Below, in pieces: positions 5,459 to 30,006 of a stretch of 36,438 nucleotides of DNA; position 1 is the stretch's first letter; every line of letters begins with the position of its first letter. This DNA comes from Lachnospiraceae bacterium. Lineage in GTDB: Bacteria; Bacillota; Clostridia; Lachnospirales; Lachnospiraceae. A program made the position numbers and the translations under genes. Below the pieces are notes generated by a model that saw only the letters and a program-made list of their open reading frames with translations, was not told the origin of the DNA and did not search any database. The stretch lies in contig JAKSPD010000018.1 in assembly GCA_024405115.1 (NCBI GenBank), positions 1 through 36,438 of the forward strand, given 5' to 3'.

Positions 5459-5482
5459 AATTACATCGATCTCCCTTTATGA

Positions 5483-6691: not shown

Positions 6692-6830
6692 AGTCGTTCT
6701 CCTTTCAATTAAGATATCGGTATATAAGATATCACCAATGCCCTGGCGAGTCAACTTAAAGTGTCTTTTTTATTGTCTAAAATTTGCTTTTTTATCAAAT
6801 GAACGATTATTGTCTGACGTTTTGTTGAAA

Positions 6831-6859
6831 AATATTTTCTTTTTGCTGAACTCTGTCAA
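6831..6859 (-). promoter_or_regulatory. Candidate promoter of the acyl-CoA operon
   Basis: Minus-strand TTGACA (6854-6859) is followed after 17 bp by AATATT (6831-6836), a weak -10. It lies between the AraC gene's terminator and the thiolase start, leaving a leader of about 130 nt. A weak -10 behind a good -35 would suit an activator-dependent promoter controlled by the neighbouring AraC-type protein. Confidence 0.4.
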
Positions 6860-6875
6860 AATTAAAAAAGCATAA

Positions 6876-6915
6876 TAAAAACGGTGATCCTCCTGATTCA
6901 CAGGAAAAATCACCG
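6876..6915 (-). terminator. Terminator of the AraC-type regulator gene
   Basis: On the minus strand CGGTGAT (6909-6915) pairs with ATCACCG (6882-6888), with a further TCCTG/CAGGA stem inside, followed by TTTTTATT. It separates the regulator from the thiolase operon. Confidence 0.8.
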
Positions 6916-6954
6916 CCTTACATAACAGTTATATCAGAAACAACAGGTTCGGTC

Positions 6955-7872
6955 TCAGAATGTTTTTCCGGCCAGAACGGATCTCATGAAGCGGTCTGGC
7001 TTTGAAGGAACGGGATCACCGCTTTTTTTCCATGGTCCGAACAGCACATCGGCCGGGTAGGCCCTGCGGCACTGTCCGGGAGTGATTCCCACATATTTAT
7101 GAAACACCCTGTTAAAATGACTGACCGTGGCAAAGCCGCACTCTGCCGCCACCTGGGAAAGACTCATGTCAGAGTATGTAATAAGCTCCGCCGCATGACG
7201 GATACGGATCATGTTCAGGGTATCGAGAATGGTCGTTTCCGTATCATTCTTATACGCCTTGCACAGATATGTCTTATTATAGTCAAGCTCCGCTGCAAGA
7301 TCATCAAGGCTGACATTTTCTGAAAAATGTTCCTCAAGCCATTCCACTATCCTTTTTGAAAGGGCAGAGTAACCTGATGTATTGACATGCTTTGAAACGG
7401 TTTCATCATTTCTTCGCATGCTTTCGGTCATCAGGTTCAAAAGCGCCGTCAGATATGAGCAAACTATGTCATCTGACACATCGGCAGTGCCGTTATATTC
7501 AAATACGATTTTTTTAAAAAGTTCTCCGGCAAGACTGTCCTCGCAGAGAATCACGTCATTATTTGAAAACAGGTCCTCAAAGTGTTTTGAGGGAACAAAT
7601 TTAATCTCAAGAAAATTAAACGGCTCTGTCCCATGATTCACATATGTATGTTTAACGTCCTTTGGCACAAGTGCGATCATTCCGGGCTTAAGTATGAGGC
7701 TTTCTTTTCCGGCACAGAAAGAGTCCTCGCCGTCAACAGCATAAATCATGTGACAGAAAGGATGAGAGTGGCTTTTTACTCCGCTTTCAGGCAGGTTATA
7801 AGATTTTGCTACCCAGAGAATGTTTAAATTATCCATCTTTACTTGACCGGATTCTGTTCCTTTTTCACTCAC
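6955..7872 (-). CDS. AraC-family transcriptional regulator with cupin sensor domain
   Basis: Up to 305 residues. The N-terminal half is an AraC-type cupin (SHPFCHMIYAVDGE, PGMIALVPKDVKHTYVNHG) likely to bind a small ligand. The C-terminal hundred residues form the double helix-turn-helix (SLDDLAAELDYNKTYLCKAY, then LSQVAAECGFATVSHFNRVF). A short tail follows the HTH. The longest frame starts at a GTG with no good RBS; the ATG at 7836 (MDNLNILW) is the other option, also with a weak site. It sits just upstream of the thiolase operon in the same orientation but behind its own terminator, so it is the likely regulator of that operon. Confidence 0.88.
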   Translation of the reverse strand: MSEKGTESGQVKMDNLNILWVAKSYNLPESGVKSHSHPFCHMIYAVDGEDSFCAGKESLILKPGMIALVPKDVKHTYVNHGTEPFNFLEIKFVPSKHFEDLFSNNDVILCEDSLAGELFKKIVFEYNGTADVSDDIVCSYLTALLNLMTESMRRNDETVSKHVNTSGYSALSKRIVEWLEEHFSENVSLDDLAAELDYNKTYLCKAYKNDTETTILDTLNMIRIRHAAELITYSDMSLSQVAAECGFATVSHFNRVFHKYVGITPGQCRRAYPADVLFGPWKKSGDPVPSKPDRFMRSVLAGKTF

Positions 7873-8019
7873 ATAATAGTATCACGTCTATTTTCAGTCA
7901 ATATCAAATGTCCATATCATTGATAAACGTCCTGCGTTCAATACTTTTTCTGTTTCAATAATTAAGTGAAAACTGCTGGCGGTTTATGTATATCTGTCGT
8001 GATTTACAACTGATAAAGC

Positions 8020-8199
8020 TCAGTCCATATCAGCCAGACTGAGCTTTGTTTCTTTCTTCTGCTTATTCCTTTTATATGTTCTGACGTCTGAGAAAGTGCA
8101 TGTATATGGTTTTACGCCATTCCAGCCTCTTCTCTGTTTATCATTAAATGCCTTCTGTTCCTTTTTGCTTCGCTTATTCAGCGGAATGAACCGGTCCAT
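8020..8199 (-). CDS. Small basic conserved hypothetical protein (59 aa)
   Basis: The ATG at 8199 has a strong AAGGAGA site seven bases upstream, so I prefer it to longer in-frame starts. The product begins MDRFIPLNKRSKKEQKAF, contains RRGWNGVKPYT, and is rich in Lys and Arg, without membrane segments. Short proteins with a similar FIP-x-KRSKK...W-x-G-x-x-P pattern recur in Lachnospiraceae; this is from memory and no function is known to me. It lies 59 bp downstream of the glucosidase stop and could share its transcript. Its charge suggests contact with RNA or DNA, but that is only a guess. Confidence 0.65.
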   Translation of the reverse strand: MDRFIPLNKRSKKEQKAFNDKQRRGWNGVKPYTCTFSDVRTYKRNKQKKETKLSLADMD

Positions 8200-8258
8200 G
8201 TCATTCTCCTTCAAATCATCTGTTTTCTGAAGAATCATAACACCGGTCTTTATAAAAA

Positions 8259-10118: not shown

Positions 10119-10329
10119 AACCGCGGGATGCCTTACTGTTGGCTTCTGCGGTTATCTGGAAAATGTGATTTAACCGCCATTACCGCTTTTGTTGGCTCTG
10201 GCGGTTATTTGGTAAATGTGATTTAACCGCCATTATTGCTTTTGGTGGCTCTGGCGGTTATTTGGTAAATGTGATTTAACCGCCATTATTGCTTTTGGTG
10301 GCTCTGGCGGTTATTTGGTAAATGTGATT
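10119..10329. repeat. Four tandem 53-bp repeats, each with an inverted repeat
   Basis: Copies start at 10119, 10172, 10225 and 10278, and a broken fifth start follows at about 10329. The last two are almost identical and the first is the most divergent, a gradient typical of slippage growth. Each good copy carries AACCGCCA and TGGCGGTT about 19 bp apart, so each can form a hairpin. There are no variable spacers, so this is not a CRISPR array. It lies between the glucosidase gene and the tRNA-Arg scar. Confidence 0.85.
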
Positions 10330-10371
10330 AACCGCAGGCGCTAACAAAAACCTTTTTGGCGGTCAATTAAG

Positions 10372-10719: not shown

Positions 10720-10768
10720 AAAAGAAACGGACCGTCTCTCTGATCAACTCAAATCGGAGAAGACGGCC
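10720..10768 (-). terminator. Terminator of the NRPS-phosphatase-STAS operon
   Basis: On the minus strand GGCCGTCTTCTCCGA pairs imperfectly with its complement (10754-10768 with 10729-10743) and is followed by GTTTCTTTT. It lies 40 bp after the STAS stop codon. Confidence 0.75.
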
Positions 10769-10808
10769 CGTCTTTGATTATAAAGACAAGGGAAAGCGGT
10801 GTTTGCAA

Positions 10809-11123
10809 TCAGACCGTTTCCCCGGCAGCTTTGATTGTTAGTTTTTTATCCATACTGGTAAGCGTGAAAATATTCATAATCTCGGAATGGACGTTGATCA
10901 GCGTTAATATTGCGCCCTGACTCTTTGCCTTTTTATTGGCGGCGATGATCTGCCTGAGTCCGGAAGAAGACATATACTCGACTTTATCAAAATCAATGAC
11001 GATTTCTTCAATGCCATCAATCTTTTCAATCTCATTTCCGAGCATAGGGGCGGCTTCGGTGTCGAGCCAACCTTCAAGCAGAAGGGTCGCCTTGTTCGCG
11101 TCGTTGATTATTGTAATGTTCAT
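10809..11123 (-). CDS. STAS-domain anti-sigma-factor antagonist (SpoIIAA/RsbV-like)
   Basis: The 104-residue protein is a single STAS domain. The loop VEYMSSSGLRQI aligns with the DSSGL loop of SpoIIAA, with Ser54 at the phosphorylated position; the usual preceding Asp is Ser52 here. In partner switching, the unphosphorylated form binds and sequesters an RsbW-like kinase, freeing that kinase's target. It starts 18 bp after the phosphatase gene behind a GGAGG site and closes the operon. Its likely partners are the PP2C and ATPase domains of the protein encoded directly upstream. No sigma factor gene lies in the window. Confidence 0.93.
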   Translation of the reverse strand: MNITIINDANKATLLLEGWLDTEAAPMLGNEIEKIDGIEEIVIDFDKVEYMSSSGLRQIIAANKKAKSQGAILTLINVHSEIMNIFTLTSMDKKLTIKAAGETV

Positions 11124-11141
11124 ATGCTTTCCTCCGTTATC

Positions 11142-13106
11142 CTATATATATTTAATAAGTGTTAATATATTGCTGCCGTTTTTCCTTTCGTAGCGTACAT
11201 CATCGACACTTCTGAACGCGATAAGTCTCCCGAGACCTCCAATCTGTTCATCGATATCGTAATCCTCCGCGCTGATCATATTCTTTGTCGGATCAAACGG
11301 TATTCCTTTATCGGAAAACTCGATCGTTATCTTTTGGGAGACCCGGACCGATACGCGTATATCGCCTTTTTCGATTTCCTCGTTATACGCGTAGGAACAG
11401 ATGTTAACGAAGATTTCCTCAGCCGCGAGGCAAAGATCTAACAGCTCTTTTCGCGAGAGCGGCAGATAAAGTATCTTCTGTTTTAACTTCGCGAACTCAT
11501 GGATCTGCGGCTGTAAGACGAGCACCTCTGTTTCGCAGGGAAGCAAACAGAGCATGGTCGTATCGTCATGTCGCTCAGCGTTCCCGGTAAACTCCGCCAT
11601 TTTCCGCTCCACATAGTCGACAGGGTCTTCTGTCTTCGAGGTCATCCATTCTTCTAAAGCCGTTTCGAGTCTTTCTGTACCGAAAAACTCGTTCGATTCG
11701 TTTACCGCTTCATTGACACCGTCGGTATAAAGGAAGATCGCGTCTCCAGGTCTCAGTGTGACAAGATCTTCGACAAATTCCTCACCCGGGAAGATACCGA
11801 GCAGGGGATTCCGGGTGCCCGAAAGGGGGATGACCCGGTCTCTCAGGATATACGGCAGGTTATGACCCGCGTTGCAATAAATATACGTCCGTTCTTTGAG
11901 ATCATAAATGCCGATGACCGCCGTCAGGAAAAGCAGAGAGGGATTATTCACCGATAAAGAATCATTGACCCTCTTCAATATTTCTGCGGGAGACTTGTTC
12001 ATTTTTGCGACCTCACGGATCAGCATCAGCGTAACAGCCATAAAGATCGAAGCTGCCACGCCTTTCCCGGAAACATCCGCGATGACGGTCAGGATATGGT
12101 TGTCGTCGATCATCATGTAATCATACAGATCTCCGGCAACATATCTCGCGGGTATCATATCCGCGTGTATGATACAGTGACCGGATTCAAAATGGCCGTT
12201 CTTCAGGAAGCCTCTCTGAATCTGAGATGATATGTCCAGCTGCGCGTTCTGTTTCTCCTGCTCCTTTGTAAGGCTGCTGATGTTGGACAGATAATTCTGA
12301 ATATTATCCGTCATGCTGTTGAATGCTGCGGATATCTTGGCTAATTCATCATTGCCGTCCACCTGAAGCTTCGACTCCGAACAGCTGCCGCTTGCGAGGT
12401 AACCGCTCATGACTTCGCATACTTTTCCCGCGGGGACGGAAATACGTTTTTCCATAACGATAGAAATGAAAAAGAAGATCAAGCAATTCGCGAGGACCGT
12501 CGTGACGGCCAGGATAGAAAATCCACGGATAACCCTTCTGTTCATCTCCTCGTATGACTGATCGACACCGGCCATCATCGGATGGCCGTACGGGTCTGTA
12601 ATCCTCACCATCGTACTGATCTCATGTCCAATCTTGCTCACGGTAACACTGTGCGAGATCTCCTTTTCCCCGTTCCATACCGCTCTTTCATCCGCTGTAA
12701 GCGTATAGCTCGTGACCTTGCCGATATATCTGTCATGCGGATTGATCTCATCGACCTTGCTGTTTTGTGAAACGCAGATATACTTTATTTTGCCGGCCTC
12801 CTGCTCCGGGACGAACAGATAGGCAAACTCGATATTGTTCAGTCTGCATATATAATTTCCCAGCGAAAGAATATTCGCGGCAAAGTTCTCATCAATCGGC
12901 ACGTTCTTTTCAAACGCTTCGGAAAGGACCATATCGGCGAAAATCGTGACCATCGCTTCGTTATTGTTTTTCGCGTTATCCGAAACAATGTGCTGAAGAA
13001 GCAGATAGGAAATGGCAAACAGAAGGAACTGTGAGACGAGGAGCACGATCAGAACCCGTACGGTAACCTTTTTTGCGATCGTATTCGCTACTTTTCTGTT
13101 TTTCAT
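11142..13106 (-). CDS. Membrane SpoIIE/RsbU phosphatase fused to RsbW-like ATPase domain
   Basis: The ATG at 13106 has a perfect AGGAGG and gives 654 residues. Order: membrane helix 16-38, extracytoplasmic sensor region about 40-190, second helix about 194-217, HAMP-like linker 220-280, PP2C phosphatase 310-525, and an RsbW/HATPase_c domain 535-654. PP2C metal-site motifs are present (AGDLYD at 324-329, ADVSGKG at 343-349, YTDG at 460-463, DDTT at 514-517). The ATPase domain has the N-box EEIFVN, FSDKGIPFDP and GGLGR. One protein thus carries both the phosphatase and a potential kinase for the STAS partner, under control of an outside sensor. It begins 27 bp after the NRPS stop, so it is made with the synthetase. 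Confidence 0.93.
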   Translation of the reverse strand: MKNRKVANTIAKKVTVRVLIVLLVSQFLLFAISYLLLQHIVSDNAKNNNEAMVTIFADMVLSEAFEKNVPIDENFAANILSLGNYICRLNNIEFAYLFVPEQEAGKIKYICVSQNSKVDEINPHDRYIGKVTSYTLTADERAVWNGEKEISHSVTVSKIGHEISTMVRITDPYGHPMMAGVDQSYEEMNRRVIRGFSILAVTTVLANCLIFFFISIVMEKRISVPAGKVCEVMSGYLASGSCSESKLQVDGNDELAKISAAFNSMTDNIQNYLSNISSLTKEQEKQNAQLDISSQIQRGFLKNGHFESGHCIIHADMIPARYVAGDLYDYMMIDDNHILTVIADVSGKGVAASIFMAVTLMLIREVAKMNKSPAEILKRVNDSLSVNNPSLLFLTAVIGIYDLKERTYIYCNAGHNLPYILRDRVIPLSGTRNPLLGIFPGEEFVEDLVTLRPGDAIFLYTDGVNEAVNESNEFFGTERLETALEEWMTSKTEDPVDYVERKMAEFTGNAERHDDTTMLCLLPCETEVLVLQPQIHEFAKLKQKILYLPLSRKELLDLCLAAEEIFVNICSYAYNEEIEKGDIRVSVRVSQKITIEFSDKGIPFDPTKNMISAEDYDIDEQIGGLGRLIAFRSVDDVRYERKNGSNILTLIKYI

Positions 13107-13133
13107 GTTTCCTCCTCGCAAACTCAAGCAGGC

Positions 13134-16100
13134 TCACTCATCTTCCATCTCAAAATAATCCAGCGATAAAAGTTTTTCCAGTGCACGTTCAAGATAGGCA
13201 CTGTCCGGAAGCGGCCAGGAAAACCCAAGGCGGTACAGAATATTGGCGGTGAACTTATTCTCTGATTCAACTCCATGGATATCGGGACGGTCGTTGGTCA
13301 TCAATCCGCGCAGTCGTTCGTTGATCTTTGGGTCTCCCAGCATACGGTGATAATCGGCATAATATTCTTCGTCCGGAACGGGCGTGATTTTTACGCCGCA
13401 TTTATTCGCCGCCTCTATCAGCTGCCATTCGTCTATAAGGAATCTGCTGTCGGCGTTGAAAGCGGTGAACTGATCATTGGTGCCTGCCAGCAGCACCACC
13501 GCCTTCGCCGTCATATCAATAGGCGAAAAGCTCATCGGGTCCGTCGCGTGGCTGATCGGGCTTTTGCCGATAACAGCAAATCCCCTGACAGCGTTCAGGA
13601 ATGCGTTGGTCTCGAAATTGATTTGGAATTCTCCGTCCTTTTGCCGCCCCATCAGATTTCCGACGCGAATGATCTTACCGCGCATCCCATTCTTGATGGC
13701 TTCCAGCATCTTCAGCTCGGCATGATACTTTGAGAGCCCGTATTTGTTGCCAAGCGCATCGATTACAAAGAGTTTGTTTTCTGCTGCTTTGATTCCTTTT
13801 CTCCAGGTCTCCTCCGTGTGTACGCCCGGGATCGATACTGTTGATATCTGCACGAGGCGCGCATTCTTTTCTTTTGCTACTTTGATCATGTTTTCCACAC
13901 CGCCCACATTGATGCGCTCAAGAATATCATCCGCCGCATAATGCTTTACACAAGCCGCACAGTTAATGATAGTATCGATGTGGGTATCCGACAATAATCT
14001 GGTACATTCATCCGTGATATCCGCCTCGAGCACGGTAACGCGCTCCCTGATCAGCTCCTCAAACGGCTGATCAAAGTAATACATAAGCATGCTCTTCAGC
14101 CTTTTCTCGGGCGATGAAAAGATTCCGGATCTTAAAAGACATATGATTTTTCCTTCGTTCCGTTCAAGCAGTTCTTTGAGTATATGTATACCCAAAAAGC
14201 CCACGGCTCCCGTAAGAAGAACGTCACCGAGAGGCTCGCGTATCACGTCTTTCGCATACTCGAGCGTATTGTATTTCAACAGCTCCGGATAATCCGATAC
14301 AATATCAGGATCATGCGCTATTTCTTCTGATCCCGAAGCTGGCCGTCTCATCCCTTCAATATGTTCCGCAAGCATTTCCGGACTCGGATTATCGAAAATA
14401 TCCTGGTACTGAACGTTCATTCCCTTTGCCATCAACTGCATAGTGACCTTTGAGGCTGAAAGCGATGTGCCGCCCATTTCAAAGAAGTTATCATCCGCGT
14501 AGTACTCATCCAATGACAGGACTGACGCGAACAGATCGCAAAGCTCCTGCTCCAGTGATTTTTTCGGGATCTTTTTTGCTTTTTTCTTTCTCTCCTTCTT
14601 TACTTCCGGAAGCGCCTTTCTATCGATTTTCCCGTTTTTCGTAAGTGGCATTGCCTCCAGCTGCAAAAGGATATCTGGCACCATATAATAGGTGAGCCTG
14701 CTCTTCAGATACGCGGTCAGACTATCGATATCAATCTCCTCAGAAGACGTAAAGAAGCCCACGAGATAATCCTCCGAGCCGTTATTTCGCACGACGACTT
14801 TACTCTGCCTGATTCCTTCAAAATCCTCTATTGATTTTTCAATCTCGTCCAACTCTATCCTGAAACCGCGCAGCTTCACCTGATTGTCCATACGTCCGCC
14901 AAATTCAATCTCACCCTCCTGATTGAACCTTGCGACATCTCCGCTGTGGTATGCCCGCGTCCCATTGATTTCAAAGAACAAGGCTCTGTTTTTCTCGGGA
15001 AGCCTGACATATCCTCTGCCGACTCCTTCTCCGGCGATGATCAGTTCTCCGACAGCGTACGGCGGAAGAATGCGGGAGAACCGGTCCATGATATACAATT
15101 GATAATTCGCCGCAGGCCCTCCGATTGTGATATTCTCCGAGCCCGTCAAATGTTTTGCGCTGGCGGAAACGGTGCACTCTGTCGGACCGTAAGCATTAAC
15201 GATATATATATCCGGAGATAACGATACAAGTTTTTCGTACAGCCCTGCTGGGAATGCTTCCGCACCGACCATGACGGACCGGATCCCTTTCAGCGCTTTT
15301 TCAAAGCATTCCATCCCCAGCATATTCATGAGGAACGACGGCGTGCACGACATGACATCCACATGATTATCCATGAGCAGATTCGTAAATGCGGCAGGAT
15401 CGTGTACCTCGTTTTCTGTTGCGATCACAACGGTCTTTCCGTTGCAAAGCGGCAGCAGTATTTCAATGATATGGATATCGAAGGAAATGGAGCCGAACGC
15501 CACGCCGACCTCTCCGCCACTCTCCCTTCCGTACATATCCCTAGCAACTGTGAATGTCTGAACAAAGTTGGAAAGGCTGTGATGCTCTATCATCACGCCC
15601 TTCGGTGTGCCAGTAGAACCAGAGGTATAGATGCAATAGGCCAGCGCGTCCGGATCCGGCGTTTCTTCCGGGTCGTCCGTGGCTTCCGAAGCAAGAAGCT
15701 CTTCCACTGTGACCGCTTGATAGTGTTTTTCTTTCGTGAAAAGTGTGCCCTTGCCGTTTTTGATCTCTTCGGTAGTAAGAACGATACGGCTATCCGAATC
15801 CGAGAGGCAGAAATCAATCCTGTCATCCGGATATTCGGGCAGGATCGGCAGGAACGCACCGCCGGCTTTCAATACTGCCAGCTCGCATACCGGAATATCC
15901 GCCGTTCTGTTAAGAAGCACGCCGACGATCGAATCCTTCATTACACCGAGCTTTCTGAGTCCGGCGCATACCTTGTTTGCCTTCCTGTTCAGTTCTTGGT
16001 AAGTAAGCTTTTCACCGTCTGCGACAACGGCTGTCTTTTCCGGTGTTTCTTTTGCTCTCTTCTCAAAAAGCCTTCCCGCAGAAACATTGTCGAACGCGAG

Positions 16101-19100
16101 CTCTGTTTGATTAATAGCTTCCAGTCTCTTTGCCGACTGCTCTGAAAGCACGGTAATCTCTTCAGCTTTTTCCTTCTGTGTAAAACCTGTCAGCACGAGA
16201 TCGAAAACATCGATGAAGCTGTTGATAAACGCTTCGCTATACCGTTCGCACTGGTATTCCGCATGGATCTCGTATTTTCCGTTCTTTAAGAATACGGTTA
16301 TGGTAATAGGTGATTTTGCCGCAATCGGCGCCGCTTCGATCAACTCTGCCTTTTCGCCGCAGAAGGTATCAAACAGGAATTCGCTTCCCTGGTAAGCGAA
16401 AATGATATCCGAACGGATCCCGTAAGCCGAGGATACTTCGGCAAACGAATAAATATCATTTGCCATGCTGCCCATCAGCTGCTCCTGCACTTCCCGGATC
16501 ATAGCAGCCACATTCCGGCTGCCCTCTGTATGAATAAGGACAGGGAGCGTTTTAACAAGCATCGTGACCGCGGAGGCCAGTCGTGAATCACTTCTGCCGT
16601 TATAGATCGTTGTATAGACCGCATCTTCAGAATTGTGGAAAAAGCTGAGTGTATAACCAAATGCCGCATTGAAATATGCGTTTGGTGTGAATTTGTTCTT
16701 TTTCAGATATTCCGTAACTGCTTTGGAAGACGTCCGCGCGATCCGCTTTAGAGAAGCCGCGCCCTTTTTGCCCTTCTCCGGCGCTTTCGAGGGCAGACAG
16801 TCCGCTTCACAGTTCTTGAAAATACTGTCATAGTATTCCTTTGCCGCGGTGTAGCGTTCGGAAGAACGTGCTGTCTCTTCATCCAAGGCGCTTTCAAATC
16901 CGCTATAATGCTCTTTTGCGATCTCGTTTCCGGCGTACGCTTTCCCGATGTCAGCAATCAGGATGTTTTGCGACATACCGTCCGAAGCAATATGATGGAA
17001 ATCCATAAACAGATAGTTACCGTCTTTCGCTTCATAGATCGCTGCTCTGTACAGGGGTTCCCCGATAAGGTTGAACGGTCTTACAAGTTCTTCCGCGGAC
17101 GGAATCTTTTCACAGCGTATCCGCGTGACGATCGGTTCCCGTGAATCGTCTCTCCGTGCCCGGATATTTCCATGCTTATCCGAGAACAAAATCGCCTTCG
17201 TATACGGATGGGCATCCAGCGTTTTTTTGATGGCGGCCGTGAGCACTTCTGTATCCAGCGCCGGACTCAGCTTCATCATCATCGGGATGTTATAAGTCGT
17301 CGTACCGGGATTCGCGCTGCATTCGATATAGATACCCATCTGGGTCTGCGTCAGCGGATAATCCTCAAAGCGCTCATATTCTTCCGTTTTATCGGAGGAA
17401 AGGACGAACTCTTCTATGCTCTGTATCGTCCTATGCTCTCTGATATCCGCCACCTTGAACGGAACATTGAACGTTTTTTCGAGTTCGATGTTTAGACGGA
17501 TAACTCCGATTGAGGTTAATCCGGCAAAGTTGAGATCTGTATCGATACCGAACCCGTTCTGTCCCAGTACTTTAACGCAGATATCGTAAATCGTCCGCTG
17601 CATGTCGCTTTCGGGAAGCCGGATATTTTCAAGCTTTCTTTCCGGTTTCGGAAGCGCGCGGCGATTCACCTTCTGGTTTTGATTCAGCGGTATAGCATCA
17701 ATCTGCATGACGACCGCGGGCACCATGTACGGCGGCTTTTGGGCCGCGATAAAGCTGTTCAAAGCTTCAGTATCCACTTTTTCATCCGCTACTACGTATG
17801 CAGCTATGAATTTTCCGCCCGCTGCGTCATCGAAAGCGGCAACAGTTGCGTCCCGAATACCGTCAAAACGGCGGATCACCTCTTCGATTTCCGGAAGCTC
17901 CACACGGAAACCGCGGATCTTGACCTGCCCATCGTGTCTGCCGATAAAATCGAGCATACCGTTCGGTAAAAACCGAACTACGTCACCGGTGCGGTACGCT
18001 TTTTTATAATTTGAGTCCGATGTGAAAGGATTGTCAATGAACACATCTTCCGTCTTTTCCGGAAGATTCAGATATCCCTTGCCTACCTGGCATCCTGCGA
18101 TAAGGAGTTCGCCGGGCGCGCCTATAGGGAGTCGGTTCATATTCTCATCAACGATGTACCCCTTTGCGTTCCCGTTAAGTTTGCCGATGGGGATCTTACC
18201 GACATTTCCGGAGACTTTGGTGCCCGAAACGTAAAGCGTACATTCGGAGGGCCCGTAAAGGTTGAAGAAATCGAAGGAAAGACTGTCTGCTTTAAAGGGG
18301 ACGAGTGCCTCGCCGCCTACAGCGATACACTTTAAATACGGCGATTTAGTCAGCAACGCGAACTGTCTTCCCACCTGCGTCGTCATTACTACGTAATCGA
18401 TCCTGTTTTCGATAAAATACCTATCAAGCGCCAGAAGATCAAGACGCATCTCTTCGGAGATCACGTGGACGGTACCTCCGCACGCAGGGATAGATGCGAG
18501 ATCGCCAAAGCAGGCGTCGAATCCGTAGGATGCGTAGCACGCAGCTACGGTATCACTGCTTAGATGAAGGATGTTTCTGTTGATCTGTACAAGCGCTCCT
18601 GCATTCCTGTACGTCAGCTGAACGCCCTTGGGGGTGCCTGTTGTTCCGCTCGTATACAGAAGAACGAACGTGTCATTCGGTTGGCTCTTTCTGAGGGTCT
18701 CCGGCGCTGCAGGAAGCCAGGCAATGTCTTCAATGAAGAGCGTAGCTCCTGTATAGTCTTTTATGGAATCGGATAGTTCCTTCGTTGTAATCAGGAGTTT
18801 TGCTCCGGCATTATGGACCATGAAAGTCAGTCTTTCCGGAGGATATGAAGCATCCAACGGTTCATACGCGCATCCGGCTTTCAATACCCCGTAGGTTGCC
18901 AGTACGATCCATTCGCTTCTCGGAATCAGTACGCTTACCGCATCGTTTGGTGCAAGTCCCAGGTTCAGGATATAGCTTGCAATTCTGTCGGTCAGTTCTC
19001 CCGCTTGGCCGTATGTATAATGCCTTCCTTCATAAACCACCAGATCCTTCTCCGGCGTTTTACGGACGTGCTCCATAAAGGATTCTACGACCGTTTTTTC

Positions 19101-22058
19101 TTCCAGTTCAAACTCTTCGCCGCAAAAACTGTCCAAGAGCTTCTCCTGACTTTCTGATACCAATTCCACTTCACGGAGCAGTTCTTTTTCGATAAACTCT
19201 TTTACGGCGCAGGCATACGCGTCCGCGAAGGCACGGATCACTCCTTCGGAATAAAGGTCGGACCTGTAGCGGAAACTTAGCCGGTAAGAGCCCTCCGTAT
19301 AGAATACCATCAACGTCATCCTGTTTATGGCATCCGGATTAAAGAGTCCCGTTACCGGATATCGCTTTCCGTCCAGACTGATCTCGGTAAAGCTGTCTCC
19401 CTGATAAACAAAAGAAAAATCATTAGTCAGACCATATTTTCCCGCAAGCTCGCTGAACGAATAGATGTCGTTCTTCACGCTCTGCCGGAAGGTTTCCTGT
19501 AGCTTTCTGATAAAATCGGCTATATTGCTTTCGCCTTTCAGTTCTGCAGGAAGCGCCAGCGTCTTCACCAGCATACCGGCCGTATTGAACGTCATAGAGG
19601 TGTGTCTTCCGTTCTCGCCAACATAAACAACGGAACTGCCCGTTCCATTATATCTGGCAAGCACGTAGGAGTATGCGGCAAGAAAAAGGGAATTCTCTGT
19701 AAGACCGTTTCCCTTCAGGAATCCGAGAAGTTTCTCTCTGTCAAGAGTCAGACCTGTTTCCAGTACGCCGAGCTTGCCGGCGTTTTTATCCTCGTAATCG
19801 CACGGGAAATCGTTGTTCAGCTCGCGGCCGTCGTACAGCTGCGCGAAAAACGTCTCCGCCTCCGCGTATCTGGGCGTCGATTTCAGGCTTTCCTCATACA
19901 CGGAAAGATCAAACGCCGATGTTTTTTCCTCATAGATGTCGTACCCGTCATAGCATCTTTCGATTTCCCTGAGCAAAATGGAAAGCGTCGTTCCGTCAAA
20001 AACGATATGGTGCGCATCTATGGCAAGAACCTTCTCTGTATCGCTTTCGAATAGGCAGCCACGGATCGTTTCGCCGTTTTTCAGATCAAACGGTCTCACA
20101 AATTCGCGAAGGGACCTCTCCATATCCTTCGTTTTGATCCGTTCGGCATGGAACGTCCCGTCCTTCGGAACCATGCACGGCTGGCCGTTTCTTTCTTCAA
20201 TACTGCACTGGTACGCTTTATGGTTGTTTACTGCCTGTTCAACCGCTGCGAGCAGCTTTTCAGTATCGGTATTTTCATCGAAACATATCTTGACAGGATT
20301 GTTATACATCAGTGTATCCGGATTTTCAGCCATCGCGAAATAAACGCCCAGCTGCGACGCTGTAAGCGGATATACATCTTTCTCCATTCTTTCGAACGGA
20401 GGTTCATTTTTTCCTCCGCTGATGATCATATCCGCAATTTTTTTCGGGGTCCTTCCCTCAAAAAACGTTTCCGTATCCAGCGGGATATCGTCTAAAACGT
20501 TGATCGTCTCGATAGCCTTCACAGAGTCTCCGCCAAGCAGAAAGAAATCGTCGTTCCGCCCGATCCGTCCGCACTTTAATACCGACTCCATCGCCTTGCA
20601 GATCGCTTCTTCGATTTTACTTTCCGGCGCAGAGTACTCCCTTTTGAATGCGGAAATATCCGGTTCCGGCAGATGAATCCTGTCCAGCTTCCCGTTCGGG
20701 TTCAGCGGAAGCTTATCCATCTTTATATAGAACGACGGCACCATATAGGAGGTCAGGTTGGCTTTGCAGAACTCCCTGATCCGGTCTTCGGCCAGTGTGT
20801 CTTCGCTTACGTAGTATGCGGCAAGATAAGTAACGCCGTTTTTTGCCGTAAAATCTTTGACCGTTACTTCCTTTATCCCCGGGATACGCCGGATTGTGTT
20901 TTCGACCTCAAGCGGTTCCACACGCTGACCATTGATCTTGATCATCCAGTCCTTGCGTTCAATGAACACAAGATTGCCATCCGAGAGCTTCTGCACAATG
21001 TCGCCGGTCCGGAACATCCGGTCGAATCCATCGACGTTTTTGAAGGGGTTTTTGATGAACGCCTTTTTTGTTTCTTTTTCGCGATTCAGGTATCCCTTTG
21101 CGATATAGCCAGATATACACAGCTCGCCGGTTTCCACTTCGTTGTTATTATCATCCAAAACATAGGCTTTCTCGCTCCCGACCGGTTTTCCGATTGGTGT
21201 GTTCTCATATTCCTTATCGATTTTGAACGACAGCAATCCGCCAAAGAGTTCCGTCGCGCCATAGCCGTTAAAGACGACCGGCTTATCATTGAAATAAAGA
21301 TTGGTGATTCTTTCGGAGCCGACAGAAATCATTTTTAAGGATTTGTTGTGCTCCAGCATGAAATGAACCAGTCTCGGGGGAACATAGGATGATTCAATGT
21401 CATTGTCATCATAATACTTCGCGAGCTTAAACGGATCACGCCGTATCTCATCCGGAACGATCACGAGGTGCTTCGCGCAGGCTATTGCCGAAATGAAATG
21501 CGATACGCCAACGATAAATGTGAACGGCGCGATGAGCCCCGCGATCCTGTTCTTTTCCATATTGTCTTTTTTCTCATGCAGGATATTCCTGTCCGCTACT
21601 GCCGAGATGGAATAAAAATCATGTATGACACCCTTCGGATTTCCTGTAGAGCCTGATGTATAAATGACCACGCCCTCGTCTTCAAAACAGAAAGGCGCGG
21701 GCTTCGTCTTCAGTTCCGGATCCATGCTACTGATAAAATCTTCGTCTATGCTGAGCTCATACCGAGAATCTTTTTTGATATAGGCAAGCCTCTTTTCCGG
21801 ATAGTCATCCGAAAGAGGAATCGCCACCGCGCCGGCCAGCCAGCATCCGAGCAGGCAGGCCGCGTATTCCTTACGCCTTGTGATTTCAACAATCACCCTG
21901 CTTCCATGCTTGATTCCTCGGGCTTTGAGGTTCGCGGCTACGCAAATACCGTAGCTATACAGTTCCTCATACGTAAACGTGCCAAACTCATCCGAAACAG
22001 CCGGCTCGTTTCTGTTCTCTTCTACCACGTCCAGAAAAAGATCAAGAAAATGTTTCAT
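13134..22058 (-). CDS. Three-module non-ribosomal peptide synthetase with terminal reductase
   Basis: This 2974-residue protein starts at an ATG behind TAGGAG. Domain order: A1 1-470 (TSGSTG 134, RTGD 350, Lys457); carrier T1 with LGGDS (Ser512); condensation C1 560-975 with HHIVFDG 683-689; A2 985-1470 (TSGTTG 1136, FDAC 1180, Lys1463); T2 with AGLTS (Ser1516); C2 1560-1970 with HHIASDG 1688-1694; A3 1985-2485 (TSGSTG 2145, FDIH 2193, Lys2477); T3 with MGGTS (Ser2532); thioester reductase 2605-2974 with TGAVGFLG 2616-2623 and Tyr2773/Lys2777. All catalytic motifs look intact. There is no epimerase or thioesterase, so an L-configured three-unit product should leave as aldehyde or alcohol. A1 lacks the amino-binding Asp (FTFIVGV). 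No phosphopantetheinyl transferase or exporter gene lies in the operon. Confidence 0.96.
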   Translation of the reverse strand: MKHFLDLFLDVVEENRNEPAVSDEFGTFTYEELYSYGICVAANLKARGIKHGSRVIVEITRRKEYAACLLGCWLAGAVAIPLSDDYPEKRLAYIKKDSRYELSIDEDFISSMDPELKTKPAPFCFEDEGVVIYTSGSTGNPKGVIHDFYSISAVADRNILHEKKDNMEKNRIAGLIAPFTFIVGVSHFISAIACAKHLVIVPDEIRRDPFKLAKYYDDNDIESSYVPPRLVHFMLEHNKSLKMISVGSERITNLYFNDKPVVFNGYGATELFGGLLSFKIDKEYENTPIGKPVGSEKAYVLDDNNNEVETGELCISGYIAKGYLNREKETKKAFIKNPFKNVDGFDRMFRTGDIVQKLSDGNLVFIERKDWMIKINGQRVEPLEVENTIRRIPGIKEVTVKDFTAKNGVTYLAAYYVSEDTLAEDRIREFCKANLTSYMVPSFYIKMDKLPLNPNGKLDRIHLPEPDISAFKREYSAPESKIEEAICKAMESVLKCGRIGRNDDFFLLGGDSVKAIETINVLDDIPLDTETFFEGRTPKKIADMIISGGKNEPPFERMEKDVYPLTASQLGVYFAMAENPDTLMYNNPVKICFDENTDTEKLLAAVEQAVNNHKAYQCSIEERNGQPCMVPKDGTFHAERIKTKDMERSLREFVRPFDLKNGETIRGCLFESDTEKVLAIDAHHIVFDGTTLSILLREIERCYDGYDIYEEKTSAFDLSVYEESLKSTPRYAEAETFFAQLYDGRELNNDFPCDYEDKNAGKLGVLETGLTLDREKLLGFLKGNGLTENSLFLAAYSYVLARYNGTGSSVVYVGENGRHTSMTFNTAGMLVKTLALPAELKGESNIADFIRKLQETFRQSVKNDIYSFSELAGKYGLTNDFSFVYQGDSFTEISLDGKRYPVTGLFNPDAINRMTLMVFYTEGSYRLSFRYRSDLYSEGVIRAFADAYACAVKEFIEKELLREVELVSESQEKLLDSFCGEEFELEEKTVVESFMEHVRKTPEKDLVVYEGRHYTYGQAGELTDRIASYILNLGLAPNDAVSVLIPRSEWIVLATYGVLKAGCAYEPLDASYPPERLTFMVHNAGAKLLITTKELSDSIKDYTGATLFIEDIAWLPAAPETLRKSQPNDTFVLLYTSGTTGTPKGVQLTYRNAGALVQINRNILHLSSDTVAACYASYGFDACFGDLASIPACGGTVHVISEEMRLDLLALDRYFIENRIDYVVMTTQVGRQFALLTKSPYLKCIAVGGEALVPFKADSLSFDFFNLYGPSECTLYVSGTKVSGNVGKIPIGKLNGNAKGYIVDENMNRLPIGAPGELLIAGCQVGKGYLNLPEKTEDVFIDNPFTSDSNYKKAYRTGDVVRFLPNGMLDFIGRHDGQVKIRGFRVELPEIEEVIRRFDGIRDATVAAFDDAAGGKFIAAYVVADEKVDTEALNSFIAAQKPPYMVPAVVMQIDAIPLNQNQKVNRRALPKPERKLENIRLPESDMQRTIYDICVKVLGQNGFGIDTDLNFAGLTSIGVIRLNIELEKTFNVPFKVADIREHRTIQSIEEFVLSSDKTEEYERFEDYPLTQTQMGIYIECSANPGTTTYNIPMMMKLSPALDTEVLTAAIKKTLDAHPYTKAILFSDKHGNIRARRDDSREPIVTRIRCEKIPSAEELVRPFNLIGEPLYRAAIYEAKDGNYLFMDFHHIASDGMSQNILIADIGKAYAGNEIAKEHYSGFESALDEETARSSERYTAAKEYYDSIFKNCEADCLPSKAPEKGKKGAASLKRIARTSSKAVTEYLKKNKFTPNAYFNAAFGYTLSFFHNSEDAVYTTIYNGRSDSRLASAVTMLVKTLPVLIHTEGSRNVAAMIREVQEQLMGSMANDIYSFAEVSSAYGIRSDIIFAYQGSEFLFDTFCGEKAELIEAAPIAAKSPITITVFLKNGKYEIHAEYQCERYSEAFINSFIDVFDLVLTGFTQKEKAEEITVLSEQSAKRLEAINQTELAFDNVSAGRLFEKRAKETPEKTAVVADGEKLTYQELNRKANKVCAGLRKLGVMKDSIVGVLLNRTADIPVCELAVLKAGGAFLPILPEYPDDRIDFCLSDSDSRIVLTTEEIKNGKGTLFTKEKHYQAVTVEELLASEATDDPEETPDPDALAYCIYTSGSTGTPKGVMIEHHSLSNFVQTFTVARDMYGRESGGEVGVAFGSISFDIHIIEILLPLCNGKTVVIATENEVHDPAAFTNLLMDNHVDVMSCTPSFLMNMLGMECFEKALKGIRSVMVGAEAFPAGLYEKLVSLSPDIYIVNAYGPTECTVSASAKHLTGSENITIGGPAANYQLYIMDRFSRILPPYAVGELIIAGEGVGRGYVRLPEKNRALFFEINGTRAYHSGDVARFNQEGEIEFGGRMDNQVKLRGFRIELDEIEKSIEDFEGIRQSKVVVRNNGSEDYLVGFFTSSEEIDIDSLTAYLKSRLTYYMVPDILLQLEAMPLTKNGKIDRKALPEVKKERKKKAKKIPKKSLEQELCDLFASVLSLDEYYADDNFFEMGGTSLSASKVTMQLMAKGMNVQYQDIFDNPSPEMLAEHIEGMRRPASGSEEIAHDPDIVSDYPELLKYNTLEYAKDVIREPLGDVLLTGAVGFLGIHILKELLERNEGKIICLLRSGIFSSPEKRLKSMLMYYFDQPFEELIRERVTVLEADITDECTRLLSDTHIDTIINCAACVKHYAADDILERINVGGVENMIKVAKEKNARLVQISTVSIPGVHTEETWRKGIKAAENKLFVIDALGNKYGLSKYHAELKMLEAIKNGMRGKIIRVGNLMGRQKDGEFQINFETNAFLNAVRGFAVIGKSPISHATDPMSFSPIDMTAKAVVLLAGTNDQFTAFNADSRFLIDEWQLIEAANKCGVKITPVPDEEYYADYHRMLGDPKINERLRGLMTNDRPDIHGVESENKFTANILYRLGFSWPLPDSAYLERALEKLLSLDYFEMEDE

Positions 22059-22176
22059 ATGATGCTCCTATAGCCGCACAATTATTGACGTGCAAGAAAA
22101 TCGCTCGCTGCATAATGTTTAAGCTCCGTCTCGGCGAAACGGCAAACGAGACAGGTCCTGCCTCTCCGGCGCACGT

Positions 22177-22428
22177 CTATGGTAGGCAGGCATTCATGCT
22201 TTGGAGAGTTATTCCATAAACAGTTAGTATTTCATAATATTTTGCCGCATCACAGGACTCGAGGTTGATATTGCAAATTCTTGAAATGGAACGGATGATC
22301 CCGCTTGCTTGTGCTTGACCTCCAGGATAAACCATTCCTACCATATCTGGTTTATAACATCTGTAAGCAAGAGCAACTTTCTCATCATGTGTAGGAGCTT
22401 TTTTCTTGAAAATATTGAACAGTCCCAT
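22177..22428 (-). CDS. Small hypothetical protein (83 aa) at the head of the NRPS operon
   Basis: The ATG at 22428 has GAGGAGG seven bases upstream. The protein begins MGLFNIFKKKAPTHDEKVA, a short amphipathic, basic N-terminus, and continues as a soluble domain with YRCYKPDMVGMVYPGG and four cysteines. I do not recognise the family. A consensus promoter with a palindromic operator sits just upstream. The NRPS starts 118 bp downstream without an obvious terminator between them, so both may share a transcript. It might be an accessory protein for the synthetase or an unrelated cargo gene. Confidence 0.65.
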   Translation of the reverse strand: MGLFNIFKKKAPTHDEKVALAYRCYKPDMVGMVYPGGQAQASGIIRSISRICNINLESCDAAKYYEILTVYGITLQSMNACLP

Positions 22429-22496: not shown

Positions 22497-22559
22497 AAGT
22501 GTAAATAATCATTACACTTAACCATAATATATACTACCATGTAATGTTACGAAAGTCAA
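22497..22559 (-). promoter_or_regulatory. Promoter with palindromic operator ahead of the NRPS operon
   Basis: Minus-strand TTGACT (22554-22559) and TAGTAT (22531-22536) are 17 bp apart. Downstream, over the expected start site, AAGTGTAA and TTACACTT (22512-22519, 22497-22504) form a perfect 8-bp inverted repeat with a 7-bp centre, placed like a repressor operator. It would control the 83-residue gene and probably the NRPS, phosphatase and STAS genes. Confidence 0.65.
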
Positions 22560-24319: not shown

Positions 24320-24958
24320 TTATTCAGGCTTTGACAAGTAATTGCTAAGCGCTTGCAGCCATTTAGGATCACTAGACTCGAACTTGACGAGATACTCGAT
24401 AAAGTTAGTGCTGGCAGGTACTGTGTCCGGATTGTTCATTGATGATACCCTTGCTTTCATTTCCGGATAAGTGCGTTGGTAGATCTTGGCACATATCGCT
24501 GCAATCTGTTCTGCATGAGCATCGTAATTCGCTATTCCTGTCAATTTTTCAATGATGCCGGCATTTGTTTTCTTGCCTTGATTGTTGAGTTGAACATCAC
24601 CGAAGTGAGACAGGACGATCTGCATAGTGCAAGGATTAGCAAAGATAATAACTTTTCCAGGCACAGCTGCTCTGTTACCATGGAATTGGCTTATCTTCTT
24701 TTTGACCAATGAGTATTCCCGAAATGGCGCTTTGTCCGTATCACAGAACACAAGTACTGCTTCATACGAGTTATTCTGAAAAATGTTGGTGTACATTGCG
24801 GGAATATTCGATGCGCTTTTTGCGTTTTTCAAATCAAATTTATATGAACTGTCCCACACGCCAAGTTCCGTGAGACGTTTGAAATACGCAAAATCTTCTT
24901 CACCTTCACAGACAACACAGATTCTGTGCTTGACCGTTATCTGAGGTAATTTAGACAT
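24320..24958 (-). CDS. RloB/TOPRIM-like putative effector of an abortive-infection pair
   Basis: The start MSKLPQITVKHR at 24958 gives 212 residues; its ATG overlaps the ATPase stop by 8 bp (ATGTCTAA), so translation is coupled. The N-terminus RICVVCEGEEDFAYFKRL carries a TOPRIM-type glutamate (Glu18), and VFCDTDKAP gives the DxD pair (Asp73, Asp75). FANPCTMQIVLSHFGD resembles the SNPCFE...LLLHF segment of RloB (PF13707). RloB-like proteins paired with an AAA ATPase are found in AbiL, and TOPRIM partners also in PARIS and OLD-like defence, where the ATPase senses infection and the TOPRIM nuclease acts. That role is inferred here from the pairing and motifs. Confidence 0.75.
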   Translation of the reverse strand: MSKLPQITVKHRICVVCEGEEDFAYFKRLTELGVWDSSYKFDLKNAKSASNIPAMYTNIFQNNSYEAVLVFCDTDKAPFREYSLVKKKISQFHGNRAAVPGKVIIFANPCTMQIVLSHFGDVQLNNQGKKTNAGIIEKLTGIANYDAHAEQIAAICAKIYQRTYPEMKARVSSMNNPDTVPASTNFIEYLVKFESSDPKWLQALSNYLSKPE

Positions 24959-26210
24959 TGCTGCGTACCTCCAGAAGTGAATTGAACAGATCCGGCTCAG
25001 GCAATGCACCGAATACACCACGCCTGTATTGCTCAATCAGATCAGTTGTACTGCGGATTCCATTCTTATCCGACTTGAATTCAGCCAGCGAATAGAGATA
25101 TGCGTTGTCACGATCTTTATGAGCAAACCATATCTGTTCCTTTCTGAAAAGAGTTTTGCAGTCTAACAGTGATACATCGTGTACGGTCGCAACAAGTTGA
25201 GCATCAGCATTCAGTTCGTTATTAAACAGTGCGATAATCGCTCTGGTAAGCTTAAAATGAAGACTGTTGTCCAGTTCATCAACAATCAGAATACGGTTTT
25301 GCTCCAAAGCATTAATAACATAGCTTGCGAGTGCAGCCATCTTTTTCGTTCCGGTAGAATCGAACAGCATACTTGGTACGGTAACACCTTTGTACACAGA
25401 GGCAAGATGCATCATTTCAACCAGAGAATTCTGAACTGCCAGAACGGCCTCCTGTGGTTTGCTATCTTTGTCCCACTTGAGATCAAGTTTAATCTCATCA
25501 TCTGAAAGGTAACGGTAGTCATCCAGAGAAAGATCCGCATTCAGAATAAAGCTGGCGATTTTTTTCTGTGCTTCATCGGAAAGCTTCAGCATGTCAATTG
25601 TTTTGCTGATGGGGATGTTGTTCATATCAATGATGTCGATTCTTGAAGCAAACCTGAGCATTGCATTTTTGATCGTGTTCAGAACAGGAAAGCGTTCTGT
25701 ACTGATCAAGTGAATAAGTATGTTATTCCTGGAAGCGACCTGCATTACAGAAATCAGATTTTCATCTGCGGAGACATAGCGATCATTTAACACATCACGT
25801 TCAAGAAAATTGTTTTCTTTCACGTTGCCATAGGTATCACGGATGATTTCTGCAAACCGTTCGTAGATATATTCGCGCTTTGCTGTATCGTATCGTACTT
25901 CAAACAGGTACTCATGGTCAGATTCAAGAAAAGAAACCGAAAGTTCGCAAACCGGATCTTCCGTAAAGAGGTTCTTTTGAATCACTGGACTTGCATTGAG
26001 CATGATATCACGCATTGTCGCGATAGCCCGAACAAAATTTGTTTTGCCGGAGTTATTGGGTCCAATCAGAATAGCTGTCTTGAGTACATTGATATTCGTA
26101 TGCTCAGAGCAGTTGCTTCTGAAATTCTTATAATGCATATTGGCACGCAAACTAAATTCTACTTCTGAATTGTAGATGCGATAATTATTTGCTTTCAAAG
26201 AAATAAGCAT
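24951..26210 (-). CDS. ABC-like AAA ATPase of an AbiL/PARIS-like defence pair
   Basis: The ATG at 26210 has GAGGTGA upstream and gives 419 residues. The Walker A motif LIGPNNSGKT (48-57) follows an N-terminus MLISLKANNYRIY typical of SMC/RecF-like ATPases of the COG1106/AAA_15 group. A signature-like DSTGTKKM lies at 284-291, and Walker B ILIVDELDNSLH has Asp311/Glu312, followed by a switch histidine in VATVHDVSLLD. Such ATPases are the sensor halves of AbiL, PARIS and related systems. It is co-transcribed with the RloB-like partner from a consensus promoter under a palindrome. Which system it belongs to needs structure-level comparison. Confidence 0.85.
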   Translation of the reverse strand: MLISLKANNYRIYNSEVEFSLRANMHYKNFRSNCSEHTNINVLKTAILIGPNNSGKTNFVRAIATMRDIMLNASPVIQKNLFTEDPVCELSVSFLESDHEYLFEVRYDTAKREYIYERFAEIIRDTYGNVKENNFLERDVLNDRYVSADENLISVMQVASRNNILIHLISTERFPVLNTIKNAMLRFASRIDIIDMNNIPISKTIDMLKLSDEAQKKIASFILNADLSLDDYRYLSDDEIKLDLKWDKDSKPQEAVLAVQNSLVEMMHLASVYKGVTVPSMLFDSTGTKKMAALASYVINALEQNRILIVDELDNSLHFKLTRAIIALFNNELNADAQLVATVHDVSLLDCKTLFRKEQIWFAHKDRDNAYLYSLAEFKSDKNGIRSTTDLIEQYRRGVFGALPEPDLFNSLLEVRSNV

Positions 26211-26264
26211 TGCATTCACCTCTGCTTGTGATATCTGACAAGATACAGCTTTCACTGCGTCTAC

Positions 26265-26303
26265 AGTATAACACAATATAATTTTTAGTGCAATATTATT
26301 GCA
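26265..26303 (-). promoter_or_regulatory. Promoter and palindromic operator of the defence pair
   Basis: Minus-strand TTGCAC (26288-26293) and TATACT (26265-26270) are exactly 17 bp apart. The -35 is overlapped by the perfect palindrome TGCAATATTATTGCA (26289-26303), and a third half-site TGCAATA lies at 26319-26325. This is a strong promoter positioned for repression, but no repressor gene is adjacent. Confidence 0.75.
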
Positions 26304-29335: not shown

Positions 29336-29339
29336 TGAA

Positions 29340-29873: not shown

Positions 29874-29899
29874 AAAAAAACCTCCTGTATTTAAGGAGG
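29874..29899 (-). terminator. Riboswitch expression platform: terminator containing the thiT RBS
   Basis: On the minus strand CCTCCT and AGGAGG pair around TAAATAC, followed by seven T and then the thiT ATG. The hairpin is a rho-independent terminator and at the same time hides the only Shine-Dalgarno sequence of thiT. Confidence 0.8.
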
Positions 29900-29908
29900 G
29901 CTCAAATA

Positions 29909-30004: not shown

Positions 30005-30006
30005 AA

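What the first reader, a model, noticed from the sequence alone, without database searches (positions are those of the whole stretch)
10809..22428. NRPS co-transcribed with a complete partner-switching signalling pair
Seen: the 2974-residue synthetase, a membrane SpoIIE/RsbU phosphatase carrying its own RsbW-like ATPase domain, and a STAS antagonist are consecutive with gaps of 27 and 18 bp and one terminator. Known: these modules normally release a sigma factor after stress. Inference: no sigma factor gene is present, so an outside signal may control peptide production through a distant sigma factor, or the ATPase/STAS pair may act on something else, even the synthetase. A sensor-controlled small-molecule operon on a mobile island would be a new kind of NRPS regulation.
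Basis: partly seen in the sequence, partly recalled or inferred. Interest (0 to 1): 0.8.

Follow-up and report, generated by a model that had tools for sequence, protein, structure and literature searches.

The report
Peptide synthetase with its own switch
A bacterium carries a peptide-making enzyme in one apparent operon with a sensor, kinase and switch protein normally used to release a gene-control factor; related clusters suggest that the switch instead works directly on making or exporting the peptide.

Summary
NRPS (13134-22058, minus, A-T-C-A-T-C-A-T-R), membrane SpoIIE:HATPase (11142-13106) and STAS (10809-11123) lie on one strand with gaps of 27 and 18 bp and a hairpin after STAS. The linkage recurs. 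Among family-sample NRPSs whose reductase domain groups with the window's, 9 of 16 (window included) have SpoIIE and/or STAS in the fetched flanks, against 1 of 12 other reductase NRPSs, 0 of 15 other NRPSs and 0 of 20 stand-alone C-domain loci. The window's STAS falls in a six-row clade found only beside such NRPSs. Related operons add a MATE exporter fused to an RsbW-like HATPase: G400 has NRPS, MATE:HATPase, STAS and SpoIIE:HATPase in a row. Elsewhere STAS or HATPase is fused to acyl-AMP ligases. No sigma gene was found within 20 kb on the same contig in 12 genomes with such clusters. I infer a dedicated partner switch acting on export or synthesis rather than on a sigma factor. The window lacks a MATE:HATPase, so its effector is unproven. 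A similar archaeal cluster was reported in 2010 (PMC2812497), so the bare linkage is not new.

The parts
13134..22058 (-). NRPS, 2974 aa, A-T-C-A-T-C-A-T-R, reductive release; best NCBIfam match is aureusimine synthetase AusA, below its cut-off
11142..13106 (-). Membrane SpoIIE (PP2C) phosphatase with extracytoplasmic stretch, weak HAMP-like match and C-terminal RsbW-like HATPase with intact-looking N, D and GGLG boxes (boxes named from recall)
10809..11123 (-). STAS antagonist (RsbV/SpoIIAA-like), serine-bearing SSSGLR site, GWLDT variant seen only in NRPS-linked STAS rows of this study
10720..10787 (-). Hairpin with T-rich tail behind STAS, probable terminator of the operon
22177..22428 (-). 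Small ORF with a good ribosome-binding site upstream of the NRPS; no family; membership of the operon uncertain
22531..22559 (-). Promoter-like site TTGACT-17-TAGTAT with TG before the second hexamer; the number of such sites equals chance

Best explanation
A dedicated partner-switching module serves a reductase-terminated NRPS. The membrane SpoIIE:HATPase senses an outside signal and, through opposed phosphatase and kinase activities on one chain, sets the phosphorylation of STAS at its conserved serine (inferred from domains). STAS is the messenger. In many relatives its receptor is probably the HATPase fused to the MATE exporter, so the switch opens or closes export of the peptide after translation; in some related loci the receptor or messenger is fused to an acyl-activating enzyme instead. 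No sigma factor is needed. In this window the MATE gene is missing from the contig, so STAS must act on the NRPS, on another exporter, or on an unassembled MATE:HATPase. Shown: gene content, linkage, fusions, clades and absence of a sigma gene near the clusters on their contigs. Inferred: every biochemical step.
For: (1) Linkage: 9 of 16 R-clade NRPS loci of the family sample against 1 of 12, 0 of 15 and 0 of 20 comparison loci (pooled Fisher 4e-6; 2e-5 without the window; counts). In a second, class-wide sample 8 of 14 close R loci carry a partner-switch part against 0 of 12 distant R loci (P 0.002); 5 of the 14 had already been met through a MATE:HATPase search. (2) Dedicated lineage: 6 of 6 rows of the window's STAS clade (99/90) and 5 of 5 of its SpoIIE clade (94/97) are beside NRPSs; G-W is in 6 of 6 of these STAS rows and 0 of 25 others. 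(3) Effector fusions: 7 of 8 tested NRPS neighbours of about 600 aa match MatE plus HATPase_c_2, 6 of them over the HATPase cut-off. Each of 14 fetched MATE:HATPase loci has an NRPS, SpoIIE or STAS in the fetched stretch. In G168 the only HATPase domain found in the NRPS/STAS/SpoIIE flanks is the exporter's. (4) STAS:AMP-ligase in 4 of 299 genomes among listed rows, the own one included, and AMP-ligase:HATPase beside STAS and SpoIIE:HATPase in 2 loci. (5) 127 sigma-70 region 2 hits in 12 genomes, none within 20 kb of the cluster on its contig. The own assembly shows three such hits, of 407, 448 and 179 aa: two of primary type and one ECF by my reading.
Against: The window has no MATE, and its genome, 78.5% complete, shows seven ordinary MATE matches but no MATE:HATPase. 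7 of 16 family-sample clade members and 11 of 14 class-sample members have no SpoIIE or STAS in the fetched flanks; the class-sample figure for SpoIIE/STAS alone, 3 of 14 against 0 of 12, is not significant (P 0.22). MATE-borne HATPases mostly lack the GGLG box and several look degenerate, so they may not be kinases. One AMP-ligase cluster (G041, L157) holds an ECF-like sigma gene between its STAS genes. Sigma genes may act from a distance, and several of the 12 contigs searched are short (13.8 kb for G506). No binding or phosphorylation was tested, and no structure could be predicted.
Confidence: 0.5

Rival explanations
1. Canonical partner switch: STAS competes for the HATPase, which otherwise holds a distant sigma factor; the signal raises transcription of the NRPS operon or other genes.
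For: All three canonical domains are present with conserved motifs; STAS-only proteins are best known for acting on anti-sigma factors (PMC8256260, abstract and section 6 read); Leahy et al. proposed regulation of expression; one related AMP-ligase cluster holds an ECF-like sigma gene.
Against: No sigma gene of SigB/SigF size (my yardstick, from recall) among the three hits in the own assembly and none within 20 kb on the same contig in 12 relatives; HATPase is fused to exporters and ligases. The own assembly is only 78.5% complete, so absence is weak.
Confidence: 0.25
2. The switch acts on the NRPS protein itself: unphosphorylated STAS binds an adenylation or carrier domain and gates synthesis.
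For: No exporter in the window; another locus has STAS, SpoIIE:HATPase and NRPS without a MATE in the fetched flanks (G506, on a 13.8 kb contig); STAS is fused to AMP-ligases, relatives of adenylation domains, in 4 genomes.
Against: No fetched reading frame joins a C domain to STAS or HATPase; the STAS:AMP-ligase rows form their own STAS clade away from the window's; many relatives have the MATE fusion instead.
Confidence: 0.15
3. Chance passengers: the switch genes merely share a mobile island and an operon with the NRPS.
For: No ortholog-like phosphatase in 24 congeners and a relaxase gene next door; SpoIIE-like genes are common in the family (201 of 299 genomes with a match).
Against: Repeated linkage with different gene orders, and STAS and SpoIIE clades confined to NRPS loci.
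Confidence: 0.06

Closest known systems
Methanobrevibacter ruminantium mru0066-mru0071 NRPS cluster (PMC2812497, passages read)
   Same: NRPS beside serine phosphatases, an anti-sigma antagonist and MatE; sensing, regulation and export were already proposed. Its release domain is called thioesterase in the text and thioester reductase in the legend of Fig. S8
   Different: Archaeal, two modules, separate genes; the passages report no HATPase fused to MatE. The window fuses HATPase to SpoIIE and has no MatE
RsbU-RsbV-RsbW / SpoIIE-SpoIIAA-SpoIIAB partner switching
   Same: PP2C phosphatase, STAS with serine site, ATPase of RsbW type
   Different: Kinase and phosphatase domains on one chain; no sigma gene in the window; co-encoded with an NRPS
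Non-canonical partner switches SypA/SypE, BtrU/V/W, HmpU/V/W (PMC8256260, section 6 read)
   Same: STAS output not known to be a sigma factor; SypE is a dual kinase/phosphatase
   Different: Outputs there are biofilm, type III secretion or hormogonium motility and polysaccharide, with targets largely unknown; here fusions point to exporter and ligases
Gut NRPSs making dipeptide aldehydes/pyrazinones (ruminopeptin; PMC12327764 passages read) and AusA (NF047350)
   Same: Reductase release in the window, so an aldehyde-type product is plausible
   Different: Below the AusA cut-off (1300 of 2500 bits); three A-T units in the window; product unknown

Membership tests
Partner-switching module (RsbU/V/W type) | SpoIIE-type PP2C phosphatase | tested here: met
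   PF07228 1.3e-45
Partner-switching module (RsbU/V/W type) | STAS antagonist with phosphorylatable serine | tested here: met
   PF01740 1.5e-12; SSSGLR site; phosphorylation itself not tested
Partner-switching module (RsbU/V/W type) | RsbW-like serine kinase domain with ATP-binding boxes | tested here: met
   PF13581 2.6e-14; N, D and GGLG boxes present in the alignment; activity not tested; NCBIfam RsbW models match below their cut-offs
Partner-switching module (RsbU/V/W type) | Cognate sigma factor | tested here: inconclusive
   None in the 26 scanned window ORFs; three hits in the 78.5% complete own assembly, of 407, 448 and 179 aa; 0 of 127 sigma hits within 20 kb of the cluster on its contig in 12 relatives
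Partner-switching module (RsbU/V/W type) | Reversible STAS phosphorylation and partner exchange | not testable with these tools
   needs biochemistry
M. ruminantium-type NRPS/phosphatase/STAS/MatE cluster | MatE exporter in the cluster | tested here: not met
   no MatE in the 36 kb contig; 14 of 16 R-clade family-sample loci have one
Aureusimine/pyrazinone synthetase AusA | score over the NF047350 equivalog cut-off | tested here: not met
   1300 of 2500 bits
Reductively releasing NRPS | C-terminal thioester reductase domain | tested here: met
   NAD_binding_4 1e-29 at 2615-2854

The most novel reading that the evidence does not exclude
A family of sigma-free partner switches in which the RsbW-type domain has become part of a transporter (MATE:HATPase) or of an acyl-activating enzyme, so that an outside signal gates export and synthesis of an NRPS-made, probably aldehyde, peptide after translation; the window is a streamlined form in which STAS acts on the synthetase.
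Probability: 0.4. Interest if true: 0.8.

Novelty: new variant of a known kind. Interest (0 to 1): 0.6.

Why it matters
If the inference holds, partner switching, known mainly for freeing sigma factors, also controls metabolite export and synthesis directly. That gives concrete candidate effectors (MATE:HATPase, STAS:AMP-ligase, AMP-ligase:HATPase, STAS:APH:HATPase) to an open question: what STAS proteins without a known sigma factor act on (named as unknown for several systems in PMC8256260, section 6). It might also help to explain why such NRPS products are hard to find in culture: without the signal the product may not be made or let out. The fusions make the idea testable with purified domains.

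Tried and rejected
Rejected: the phosphatase start at TTG 13127 (a better ATG with AGGAGG lies at 13106). Rejected: the RsbW-like 148-aa HATPase on G000:C12 as partner, because it sits with DRTGG and Fe-hydrogenase genes. Rejected: the 594- and 600-aa own-genome HATPase hits as MATE fusions; they read as sensor histidine kinases by eye and do not match the MATE profile. A third hit, the 604-aa frame on C34, was not fetched, but a MATE:HATPase query does not find it. Rejected as evidence: the promoter-like site upstream of the operon (2 found, 2.1 expected).

Led nowhere: the search for related loci gave three Treponema SpoIIE loci without an NRPS. Plasmid searches gave no record covering 80% of the phosphatase; for the MATE:HATPase one record covered 80%, at 24% identity and in the MATE part. 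Weak, sub-cut-off sCache_3 hints appeared in two relatives' sensors (L159, L188) but not in the window's. The M. ruminantium MatE was not at hand to look for a fused HATPase.

Searches for prior reports of a MATE:HATPase or of an NRPS under partner switching: (open-access library only). Only PMC2812497 bore directly on it; PMC5467289 (passages) mentions a methanogen NRPS and PPTase. The Fischbach and Schneider papers on pyrazinones and ruminopeptin were not read; they are known here through passages of PMC12327764.

Rows dropped and limits: G269 (contig cut inside the NRPS; STAS and SpoIIE:HATPase present) was left out of the R-clade count. The NRPS loci were taken from its listed rows, and not all were fetched: 44 loci counted, window and G269 included. 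score at most 5 and 4 candidates a genome in most genomes and cut their lists. In one search, 14 of 15 non-own rows at 39% identity or more and 12 of the other 25 rows were examined; the partial G478 row (48% over 194 residues) was not fetched. 14 of 20 listed rows that reach query residue 585 were fetched. The R clade was read off the tree with the labels visible, and the window, the ascertainment case, is among the 9 of 16 (8 of 15 without it). In the 15 NRPS loci without a visible reductase one frame (L095) has a weak kinase-like HATPase match (1e-4); in the 20 controls one frame (L129) has a weak match to the sensor profile only (4e-4). Absent flanking genes may lie beyond contig ends.

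Full report
What is there. On the minus strand, 22058 to 10809, lie a 2974-aa NRPS, a membrane SpoIIE phosphatase with a C-terminal RsbW-like HATPase, and a STAS protein, 27 and 18 bp apart, followed by a hairpin. Profile order in the NRPS is A-T-C-A-T-C-A-T-R. The first A domain seems to lack the Asp usual for alpha-amino-acid binding (my reading by eye of the sequence against a motif I recall), so the starter may be an acyl or aryl acid; with reductase release I expect an aldehyde, but the product is unknown. The best NCBIfam match is aureusimine synthetase, well below its cut-off. The window HATPase keeps N, D and GGLG boxes (named from recall); STAS keeps the serine site.

Is the linkage real? 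I took Condensation-domain matches in 299 family genomes (111 with a match) and fetched flanks of 43 NRPS loci besides the window, plus 20 stand-alone C-domain loci as controls. A reductase-domain tree of 33 rows puts the window in a 21-row clade (100/99). Five of those rows came from the later MATE-led search and are left out of the counts. Of the 16 others, 9 have SpoIIE and/or STAS in the fetched flanks (G000, G121, G168, G298, G056, G007, G225, G057, G252); 12 have at least one of SpoIIE, STAS or HATPase; 14 have a MATE gene, recognisably fused to HATPase by the local profile in 10. The window and G121 have no MATE. Outside the clade 1 of 12 reductase rows (G146) has SpoIIE and HATPase, and 2 of 12 have an ordinary MATE (G148, G214). 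NRPSs without a visible reductase: 0 of 15 with SpoIIE or STAS. Stand-alone controls: 0 of 20 with SpoIIE, STAS or HATPase. G269, cut by a contig end, has STAS and SpoIIE:HATPase beside its NRPS and is not counted. Fisher on SpoIIE/STAS, pooled comparison: 4e-6, 2e-5 without the window. The rows are related species and the clade was read off with labels in view, so this P is only a guide.

Second sample. With the window's reductase domain as query, 391 genomes of the class gave 41 rows. Of 15 non-own rows at 39% identity or more I examined 14, five of them already fetched through the MATE search. SpoIIE/STAS: 3 of 14 (G400, G506, G654). Any partner-switch part, MATE:HATPase included: 8 of 14. 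Any MATE: 11 of 14. Nothing: 2 of 14 (G386, G587). Of 12 examined among the 25 rows at lower identity none has SpoIIE, STAS, HATPase or MATE. 8 of 14 against 0 of 12 gives P 0.002; 3 of 14 against 0 of 12 is not significant, P 0.22.

A dedicated lineage. Among 31 STAS rows, 12 of them NRPS-linked, the window's falls in a six-row clade (99/90; the bootstrap had not settled), all six beside NRPSs in genomes of three families, all with G-W where the other 25 have another residue; a rough hypergeometric estimate gives 0.001. Among 30 SpoIIE rows, 14 of them NRPS-linked, its five-row clade (94/97, just under the mark for a firm branch) is likewise all NRPS-linked, estimate 0.014. Other NRPS-linked STAS and SpoIIE rows lie elsewhere in the trees, so such modules seem to have joined NRPSs more than once.

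What the switch may act on. The recurrent neighbour of about 600 aa is a MATE exporter fused to HATPase_c_2. G400, of another family, has NRPS, MATE:HATPase, STAS and SpoIIE:HATPase in that order, the reading frames abutting or overlapping. In G168 the exporter carries the only HATPase domain found in the fetched flanks. Of 14 MATE:HATPase loci fetched after a class search, 5 have an NRPS next to it and 10 have SpoIIE and/or STAS in the fetched 14-20 kb, 14 of 14 one or the other. STAS is fused to an AMP-ligase in 4 of 299 genomes among the listed rows, including the window's own at G000:C57. HATPase is fused to an AMP-ligase beside STAS and SpoIIE:HATPase in G229 and G081 (the Pfam match for G229 is below cut-off). 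STAS:APH:HATPase and STAS:APH fusions also occur. Fused domains usually share a task, so I read exporter and ligases as effectors. The MATE-borne HATPases mostly lack the GGLG box, and several look degenerate, which suits a receptor better than a kinase.

The sigma alternative. The own assembly, 78.5% complete, shows three sigma-70 region 2 hits, of 407, 448 and 179 aa, two of primary type and one ECF by my reading. In 12 relatives with linked clusters 127 hits were found and none is within 20 kb of the cluster on its contig; the nearest, in G056, is a 405-aa frame about 20 kb away. Some of these contigs are short. A primary-sigma profile and an ECF query over all 9018 fetched reading frames found, apart from the own sigma genes, one frame in a comparison locus (L190) and one ECF-like gene inside the G041 AMP-ligase cluster; the last is a counter-case. 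A distant sigma factor remains possible.

The window's own effector. The own genome has seven ordinary MATE matches and no MATE:HATPase, so in this species the exporter fusion is absent or unassembled. G506 has the same set, STAS, SpoIIE:HATPase and NRPS, without a MATE on its short contig.

Mobility. None of 24 congeners has an ortholog-like match to the phosphatase (best-scoring row 33%, highest 40% over part of it); relaxase and conjugation-type genes lie to the right.

Known and new. Leahy et al. 2010 reported an archaeal NRPS with serine phosphatases, an anti-sigma antagonist and MatE and proposed sensing, regulation and export (passages read). STAS systems without a known sigma output are reviewed in PMC8256260 (abstract and section 6 read). 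I found no report of MATE:HATPase fusions or of a partner-switch lineage dedicated to NRPSs in searches of an open-access library, which is not proof of absence. Verdict: new variant of a known kind, well-supported linkage, inferred mechanism.

Noticed in passing
L137 (G000:C57) 161-2029 and 2013-2924: Own genome encodes a STAS domain fused to an acyl-AMP ligase, overlapping an APH-type kinase gene (TIGR02172-like, below cut-off); STAS:APH and STAS:APH:HATPase fusions exist in relatives.
   Followed up: partly
L138 (G000:C23) 5077-8200: A second SpoIIE:HATPase (936 aa) plus STAS pair in the same genome, of the GRLDT type; no NRPS or MATE profile match in the 19 kb fetched.
   Followed up: partly
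window 438-1237: Two adjacent ORFs match successive parts of one carboxyltransferase A/B domain (CT_A_B), so the gene looks broken, near the tRNA-Ser at 138-227.
   Followed up: no
window 10140-10335: Tandem array of 3.7 copies of a 53-bp unit between the STAS gene and the amylase gene.
   Followed up: no
window 28694-30006: TPP riboswitch in front of a thiamine transporter and a thiamin pyrophosphokinase gene, between the relaxase and the conjugation-type genes.
   Followed up: no
window 24320-26276: AAA_21 ATPase gene and RloB-like gene (below Pfam's cut-off) next to the relaxase, a possible defence pair.
   Followed up: no
L040 2134-3840, L066, L068, L076, L072: MATE proteins of about 570-600 aa with an unassigned C-terminal tail of about 130 residues beside NRPSs; perhaps decayed HATPase domains.
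   Followed up: partly
L157 (G041:C46) 10940-11443: ECF-like sigma gene inside a cluster of HATPase, SpoIIE, two STAS genes and a STAS:AMP-ligase.
   Followed up: no
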